This document shows, piece after piece, positions 29,976-30,020 of a DNA stretch of 64,000 bases. A program made the position numbers and the translations under genes. Below the pieces are notes generated by a model that saw nothing but the letters and a program-made list of their open reading frames with translations, searched no databases and had not been told where the DNA came from. Each line of letters opens with the position of its first letter. Within the stretch, counting starts at the first letter, position 1. Source of the DNA: an uncultured Sphingomonadaceae bacterium (lineage in GTDB: Bacteria; Pseudomonadota; Alphaproteobacteria; Sphingomonadales; Sphingomonadaceae); NCBI GenBank assembly GCA_913060895.1, contig CAJXSN010000012.1, positions 19,935-83,934 of the forward strand, written 5' to 3'.

Positions 29976-30020
29976 GGCGCTCAGAAAGCGCTCTTGCAGC
30001 GCTCAAAAAGCGCTCAAAAC
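29976..30020. promoter_or_regulatory. Four direct heptamer repeats at 11-bp pitch; candidate SARP-type operator
   Basis: (A/G)GCGCTC with GCGCTC starting at 29977, 29988, 29999 and 30010 (exactly 11 bp apart), in the divergent intergenic region next to a SARP-like regulator gene. Confidence 0.75.

What the first reader, a model, noticed from the sequence alone, without database searches (positions are those of the whole stretch)
29976..30020. Four heptamer repeats at an exact 11-bp pitch beside a SARP-type regulator: a likely SARP operator outside Actinobacteria
Seen: GCGCTC starts at 29977, 29988, 29999 and 30010, each spaced 11 bp; extended unit (A/G)GCGCTC + 4 nt. On the minus strand this reads GAGCGCT-TTTT-GAGCGCT-GCAA-GAGCGCT-TTCT-GAGCGCC. 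Established: Streptomyces SARPs (ActII-ORF4, DnrI) bind TCGAG-type heptameric direct repeats with 4-bp spacers (11-bp pitch, same DNA face). The array lies between the autotransporter GTG (29889) and the SARP-like regulator GTG (30180). Inference: the neighbouring regulator controls the autotransporter and/or its own operon with the P450-DyP fusion. A possible plus-strand -10 (TATTAT, 30045-30050) follows the array.
Basis: partly seen in the sequence, partly recalled or inferred. Interest (0 to 1): 0.85.

Follow-up and report, generated by a model that had tools for sequence, protein, structure and literature searches.

The report
Conserved operator of a SARP-like regulator
The repeated short DNA motif in front of this gene is very probably the binding site through which a SARP-like regulator controls its own operon; similar arrays sit in front of its relatives across several Alphaproteobacteria, where such sites appear not to have been described.

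Summary
The array is real and not chance. GCGCTC occurs at 29977, 29988, 29999 and 30010; no order-1 simulated window (0 of 200) held a comparable array. Upstream of homologous regulators from Erythrobacteraceae to Reyranella and Phenylobacterium, internal repeats concentrate at lags 11 and 22 bp (26 and 25 runs; other lags average 2.4). A 33-bp three-unit profile trained without the test locus and its relatives puts the regulator's upstream site first in 36 of 42 loci, including this window. The family unit is (G)CGT(GA/TC); GCGCTC is a local version. The degenerate three-unit pattern occurs once in this 2.7-Mb genome, here. The array points towards the regulator, and its last unit supplies the -35 of the only sigma-70-like promoter found. 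The regulator's DNA-binding domain matches AfsR, then EmbR, best among solved structures, but a TolB-like part plus TPRs replaces a recognisable BTAD. Best reading: an autoregulatory SARP-type operator driving the regulator-P450-DyP operon. Control of the divergent autotransporter is possible but unproven. Binding and sign of regulation are untested.

The parts
29977..29987 (+). operator unit 1, GCGCTCAGAAA
   Evidence: in-phase unit also present in G066, G132 and Qipengyuania L040
29988..29998 (+). operator unit 2, GCGCTCTTGCA
29999..30009 (+). operator unit 3, GCGCTCAAAAA; first unit of the 33-bp core shared across the family
30010..30020 (+). operator unit 4, GCGCTCAAAAC
30023..30028 (+). 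putative -35 hexamer GTGAAA inside unit 5
   Evidence: only sigma-70-like promoter in 29850-30250, spacer 16; shuffles give 0.3 on average
30045..30050 (+). putative -10 hexamer TATTAT of the regulator promoter
   Evidence: aligned TGGnCTAnT block shared by the window and three relatives
30180..31880 (+). SARP-like regulator gene (566 aa from the GTG): SARP/EmbR-type winged-helix domain, a short BTAD-like LEGxDLxGEExFEDWLRxxR stretch, an alpha/beta (TolB-like) part, TPRs
31884..36227 (+). P450-DyP fusion gene, 3 bp after the regulator stop, probably co-transcribed
23869..29889 (-). divergent autotransporter gene, beta-domain PF03797; a possible second target

Best explanation
The array is the operator of the adjacent SARP-like regulator at its own promoter. 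Regulator monomers bind side by side, one per 11-bp unit and so all on one face of the DNA, and the last unit (30021-30031) overlaps the -35 of the promoter GTGAAA-N16-TATTAT. From there they most likely contact RNA polymerase and sigma region 4, as AfsR does, and activate a regulator-P450-DyP operon: positive autoregulation. Shown here: the array, its conservation upstream of the regulator family, its uniqueness in this genome, the promoter overlap (by consensus scan), the SARP-type DNA-binding domain, and the coupling to the P450-DyP gene. Inferred: binding by this protein, cooperativity, activation rather than repression, the operon, and any effect on the divergent autotransporter.
For: Motif-free lag spectrum of 37 non-redundant upstream regions, window excluded: 26 runs at lag 11 and 25 at lag 22; other lags mean 2.4, sd 1.6; lag 33 has 7. 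282 upstream regions of other genes in the same loci give 0.08 runs per region at lag 11 against 0.70. Leave-one-out profile, relatives removed: regulator-upstream site ranks first of roughly 15,000-128,000 positions in 36 of 42 loci; in the window 25.5 bits against 8.0 for the next best of 127,676. The array is kept where the upstream gene is not the autotransporter and where the P450-DyP gene is absent, so it tracks the regulator. CGYKM-N6-CGYKM-N6-CGTGAA occurs once in the whole genome, here; reversed-pattern control 0. Profile of the DNA-binding domain hits AfsR (E 7e-4), then EmbR (0.025), then ToxR (0.18). AfsR uses two 11-bp direct repeats overlapping the -35 (PMC10936776) with unit CGTT(T/C)ATCGNN (PMC10972967), close to CGT(TC/GA) here. 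Full-length P450-DyP genes occur in 15 of 401 family genomes, all 15 among the 24 with the regulator.
Against: No binding or expression data. Conservation shows that the site matters to this gene, not which protein binds; another factor of the OmpR/PhoB fold could use an 11-bp pitch. A fixed -10 is clear only in the close relatives; over 33 loci there is only a mild A+T rise at the expected offset. The published SARP spacing of 8 bp between the 3' repeat and the -10 (PMC10936776) is not met with the favoured -10 (13 bp after the 11-bp unit, 17 after the heptamer). In a few loci (L059, L060, L062) no array precedes the regulator.
Confidence: 0.8

Rival explanations
1. The array is a two-sided operator: the regulator bound to units 1-5 activates its own operon rightwards and also controls the divergent autotransporter leftwards. 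(An extension of the best explanation, not exclusive of it.)
For: In the four loci closest to the window's arrangement the array has five units, and autotransporter loci carry more units on average (4.4 against 3.5; Mann-Whitney p 0.006; loci are not phylogenetically independent). The array starts only 88 bp from the autotransporter start. In L059 a four-unit array lies in reverse orientation upstream of a secreted-protein gene.
Against: The array keeps its orientation relative to the regulator also where no autotransporter is present. No leftward sigma-70-like promoter was found by the scan.
Confidence: 0.35
2. The site is autorepressive: regulator bound over the -35 blocks RNA polymerase and is released by a ligand or signal sensed by the TolB-like/TPR part.
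For: The last unit covers the -35 hexamer; many autoregulated genes are repressed this way (general knowledge).
Against: Known SARPs binding in a similar way at the -35 activate (PMC10936776); the -35 here is poor, as at activated promoters.
Confidence: 0.2
3. The array is a box for another OmpR/PhoB-type response regulator, and the neighbouring regulator gene is merely its target.
For: An 11-bp pitch of 7+4 is shared by PhoB/OmpR-type boxes in general (own knowledge); Streptomyces PhoP shares AfsR's site (PMC10972967).
Against: In this genome the three-unit pattern is unique to this promoter, unlike a global regulator's box; and the arrays follow one regulator family through many unrelated neighbourhoods.
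Confidence: 0.1
4. Chance or replication-slippage tandem repeat without function.
For: The units share their spacers in part.
Against: 0 of 200 simulated windows; conserved pitch with diverged unit sequence and spacers in relatives at 30-75% protein identity.
Confidence: 0.01

Closest known systems
AfsR and the afs box (Streptomyces coelicolor, SARP family)
   Same: SARP-type DNA-binding domain is the best match among solved structures; direct repeats at 11-bp pitch overlapping the -35; unit CGTT(T/C)A resembles CGTTC/CGTGA here (PMC10936776, PMC10972967)
   Different: Alphaproteobacterial; 3-5 units instead of 2; the last unit itself covers the -35; base-contacting residues T88 and R92 of AfsR align with R71 and N75 of this regulator (read from the alignment); no recognisable BTAD or NOD; TolB-like part plus TPRs instead
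PimR/DnrI/ActII-ORF4 heptameric operators (Streptomyces)
   Same: Heptamers with 4-bp spacers, often three copies, same DNA face; cooperative monomer binding proposed for PimR from EMSA (PMC5930380)
HilA, ToxR and CadC-type regulators of Gram-negative bacteria
   Same: OmpR-type winged helix at the N-terminus; HilA also carries TPR-like repeats and binds direct repeats (own knowledge, not tested here)
   Different: ToxR matches far more weakly than AfsR (E 0.18 against 7e-4); binding motifs are unrelated as far as recalled

Membership tests
SARP family (AfsR/DnrI/ActII-ORF4) | N-terminal OmpR-type winged-helix DNA-binding domain of the SARP/EmbR kind | tested here: met
   Profile of residues 1-145: AfsR E 7e-4, EmbR 0.025, no PhoB/OmpR hit; PF00486 weakly in 6 of 19 members
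SARP family (AfsR/DnrI/ActII-ORF4) | Bacterial transcriptional activation domain (BTAD, PF03704) directly after it | tested here: not met
   BTAD weakly in 4 of 72 homologs (best E 0.0053) and not in this protein; the model shows one helix, then an alpha/beta part, then TPR helices; a short BTAD-like LEGxDLxGEExFEDWLRxxR stretch remains
SARP-type operator | Direct repeats at 11 or 22 bp pitch upstream of the target | tested here: met
SARP-type operator | Repeats overlap the -35 region | tested here: met
   GTGAAA 30023-30028 within unit 5; rests on a consensus scan
SARP-type operator | 3' repeat 8 bp from the -10 | tested here: not met
   13 bp from the 11-bp unit (17 from the heptamer) to TATTAT; the -10 itself is only predicted
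SARP-type operator | Bound by the SARP and activates transcription | not testable with these tools
   needs EMSA, footprint and reporter assays

The most novel reading that the evidence does not exclude
A distinct alphaproteobacterial branch of SARP-like regulators, without a proper BTAD and with TolB-like/TPR sensing parts, binds its own CGTGA/CGTTC operator code and forms with a P450-DyP fusion a self-contained, self-activating redox module; in one lineage the operator has been extended from about three to five units to add a divergent autotransporter.
Probability: 0.35. Interest if true: 0.68.

Novelty: new variant of a known kind. Interest (0 to 1): 0.55.

Why it matters
SARPs and their 11-bp repeat operators are known almost only from Actinobacteria. 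Here a whole family of uncharacterised, poorly annotated alphaproteobacterial regulators gets a predicted binding code, a single clear target promoter and a conserved enzyme partner, so its function becomes directly testable. It also allows a comparison of how the same DNA-binding fold reads CGTGA here and CGTTYA or CGGCAAG in Streptomyces. No paper describing such an operator outside Actinobacteria was found in the library searched; that library lacks most subscription papers.

Tried and rejected
Covariance-model search of the own genome with the 33-bp profile gave only one weak hit inside a coding region and did not even return the window site, so its pre-filter was too coarse; the degenerate pattern search replaced it. 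Near matches to two GCGCTC-type heptamers elsewhere in the genome lie, where inspected, in coding regions and were treated as background. Foldseek on the full-length model returned almost only TPR proteins; a separate fold of the first 145 residues without an alignment was of low confidence and was not used. A class-wide search for further regulators found no new ones, so out-of-sample testing rests on leave-one-out. Rfam finds no RNA element here. Papers on HilA boxes and P450-DyP fusions: nothing useful in the library.

Full report
Observation. The plus strand carries GCGCTC at 29977, 29988, 29999 and 30010, exactly 11 bp apart. In the 64-kb window this is the only 6-mer repeated four times at one fixed pitch between 7 and 20 bp, and none of 200 order-1 simulated windows had such an array. 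An independent promoter scan of 29850-30250 finds one sigma-70-like promoter, plus strand, GTGAAA (30023-30028), spacer 16, TATTAT (30045-30050); shuffles average 0.3. The -35 hexamer therefore lies in the fifth unit.

Cross-species test. Homologs of the regulator were collected from the family's genomes (24 of 401 hold one) and from public genomes (Qipengyuania, Reyranella, Phenylobacterium, Novosphingobium, Sphingomonas, Caulobacteraceae and a Hyphomicrobiales MAG). In 37 non-redundant upstream regions without the window, exact runs of at least six bases repeat at lag 11 (26 runs) and lag 22 (25 runs); other lags average 2.4 with standard deviation 1.6, and lag 33 gives 7. This test uses no motif. 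The 6-mer behind it is mostly CGTGAA. Upstream regions of 282 other genes in the same loci show no such peak (0.08 runs per region at lag 11 against 0.70; 20,000 bootstrap sets of 37 controls reached at most 15).

Motif. A 33-bp profile of three contiguous units fits 39 of 43 upstream regions: unit 3 is nearly invariant CGTGA, unit 2 is GCGTTC, GCGTCC, GCGCTC or GCGTGA, unit 1 is similar. The window's GCGCTC is thus a lineage version of a more general (G)CGT(GA/TC) unit. The profile was first seeded from a pattern I had seen in these sequences, so I re-tested it leaving out each locus and its relatives: the site upstream of the regulator ranks first over both strands of the whole locus in 36 of 42 cases, and within the first three in 39. 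In the window it scores 25.5 bits against 8.0 for the next best of 127,676 positions. Three loci (L059, L060, L062) lack it. Arrays have three to five units.

What the array belongs to. In most loci the regulator is followed directly by a P450-DyP fusion gene. In the family, all 15 genomes with a full-length fusion are among the 24 with the regulator (the count of 15 is mine from the listed matches). But the array is also present where the fusion is absent (L065, L066, L071, L080, L081, L082, L061) and where the upstream gene is not the autotransporter. It therefore tracks the regulator, in fixed orientation towards it. In this genome the degenerate three-unit pattern occurs once, here, with a zero count for the reversed control. 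In relatives that strict pattern finds some regulator promoters but misses many true sites and adds scattered other hits, so uniqueness of the target is best supported in this genome only.

The regulator. Pfam finds only TPRs in it. A profile of the first 145 residues of 19 homologs hits AfsR first (E 7e-4), then EmbR (0.025), then ToxR (0.18) among all solved structures. In that alignment the recognition helix QAQSSLRRELSNLRAIL lies on AfsR QALAAVRTYASRLRKVL; AfsR's phosphate-contacting R87 corresponds to invariant R70, while base-contacting T88 and R92 correspond to R71 and N75 (residue contacts from PMC10936776; the correspondence is my reading of the alignment). The full-length model is confident (pLDDT 89) and shows winged helix, one helix, an alpha/beta part and a helical TPR region. 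The label TolB-like for the alpha/beta part rests on source names of homologs and on general knowledge. A BTAD is not recognisable apart from a short LEGxDLxGEExFEDWLRxxR stretch. So it probably works like a SARP at DNA but is not a canonical SARP.

Comparison with known operators. SARPs bind direct repeats at 11 or 22 bp, the 3' one 8 bp from the -10, with one protomer per repeat, side by side, engaging sigma region 4 (PMC10936776). PimR needs at least two heptamers and works best with three and 4-bp spacers (PMC5930380). AfsR's unit is CGTT(T/C)ATCGNN (PMC10972967), close to CGTTC/CGTGA here. The 8-bp spacing is not met with the favoured -10. An 11-bp pitch alone would not single out SARPs, since PhoB-type boxes share it (own knowledge); the case rests on the pairing of pitch, unit similarity, the SARP-type domain and co-conservation with this regulator.

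Mechanism. Most likely, monomers bind cooperatively to adjacent units and activate the regulator-P450-DyP operon from the -35 position. Autorepression is the main alternative on sign. Control of the divergent autotransporter is possible: autotransporter loci have somewhat longer arrays (4.4 against 3.5 units, p 0.006, not corrected for relatedness), and in L059 a four-unit array lies in reverse orientation before a secreted-protein gene, but the orientation and promoter evidence favours the regulator side.

Verdict. It is a new variant of a known kind; binding remains to be shown.

Noticed in passing
window 31884-36227: A single 1447-aa protein joins a P450 domain, a middle part with apparent membrane segments and a DyP peroxidase domain with a GxxDG motif; relatives of about 1400-1630 aa are found in several Alphaproteobacteria next to the regulator.
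   Followed up: partly
window 30125-30135: Exact copy of the 11-mer GGGCGCTCAGA of 29975-29985, 150 bp downstream and out of the 11-bp register, in the leader of the regulator gene.
   Followed up: no
L042, L043, L045, L048, L052, L053, L055, L057, about -200 and -53 from the regulator start: Phenylobacterium/Caulobacteraceae loci carry CGTGAA arrays at two places: three units near -200 and, in most, two near -53.
   Followed up: no
L059 12793-12835: Four-unit array 3 kb downstream of the regulator, in reverse orientation before a secreted-protein gene, while the regulator's own upstream lacks one: a possible second kind of target.
   Followed up: partly
L095 (genome G056) 1501-1523: GCGTGAAAAAATCGTGAAAT pair on the minus strand upstream of small secreted-protein-like genes, a candidate additional regulon member.
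   Followed up: no
window 23245-23790: LuxR-type (GerE) small regulator downstream of the autotransporter, conserved with it in three close relatives.
   Followed up: no
L075: Two tandem copies of the regulator, each with its own array, before one P450-DyP gene.
   Followed up: no
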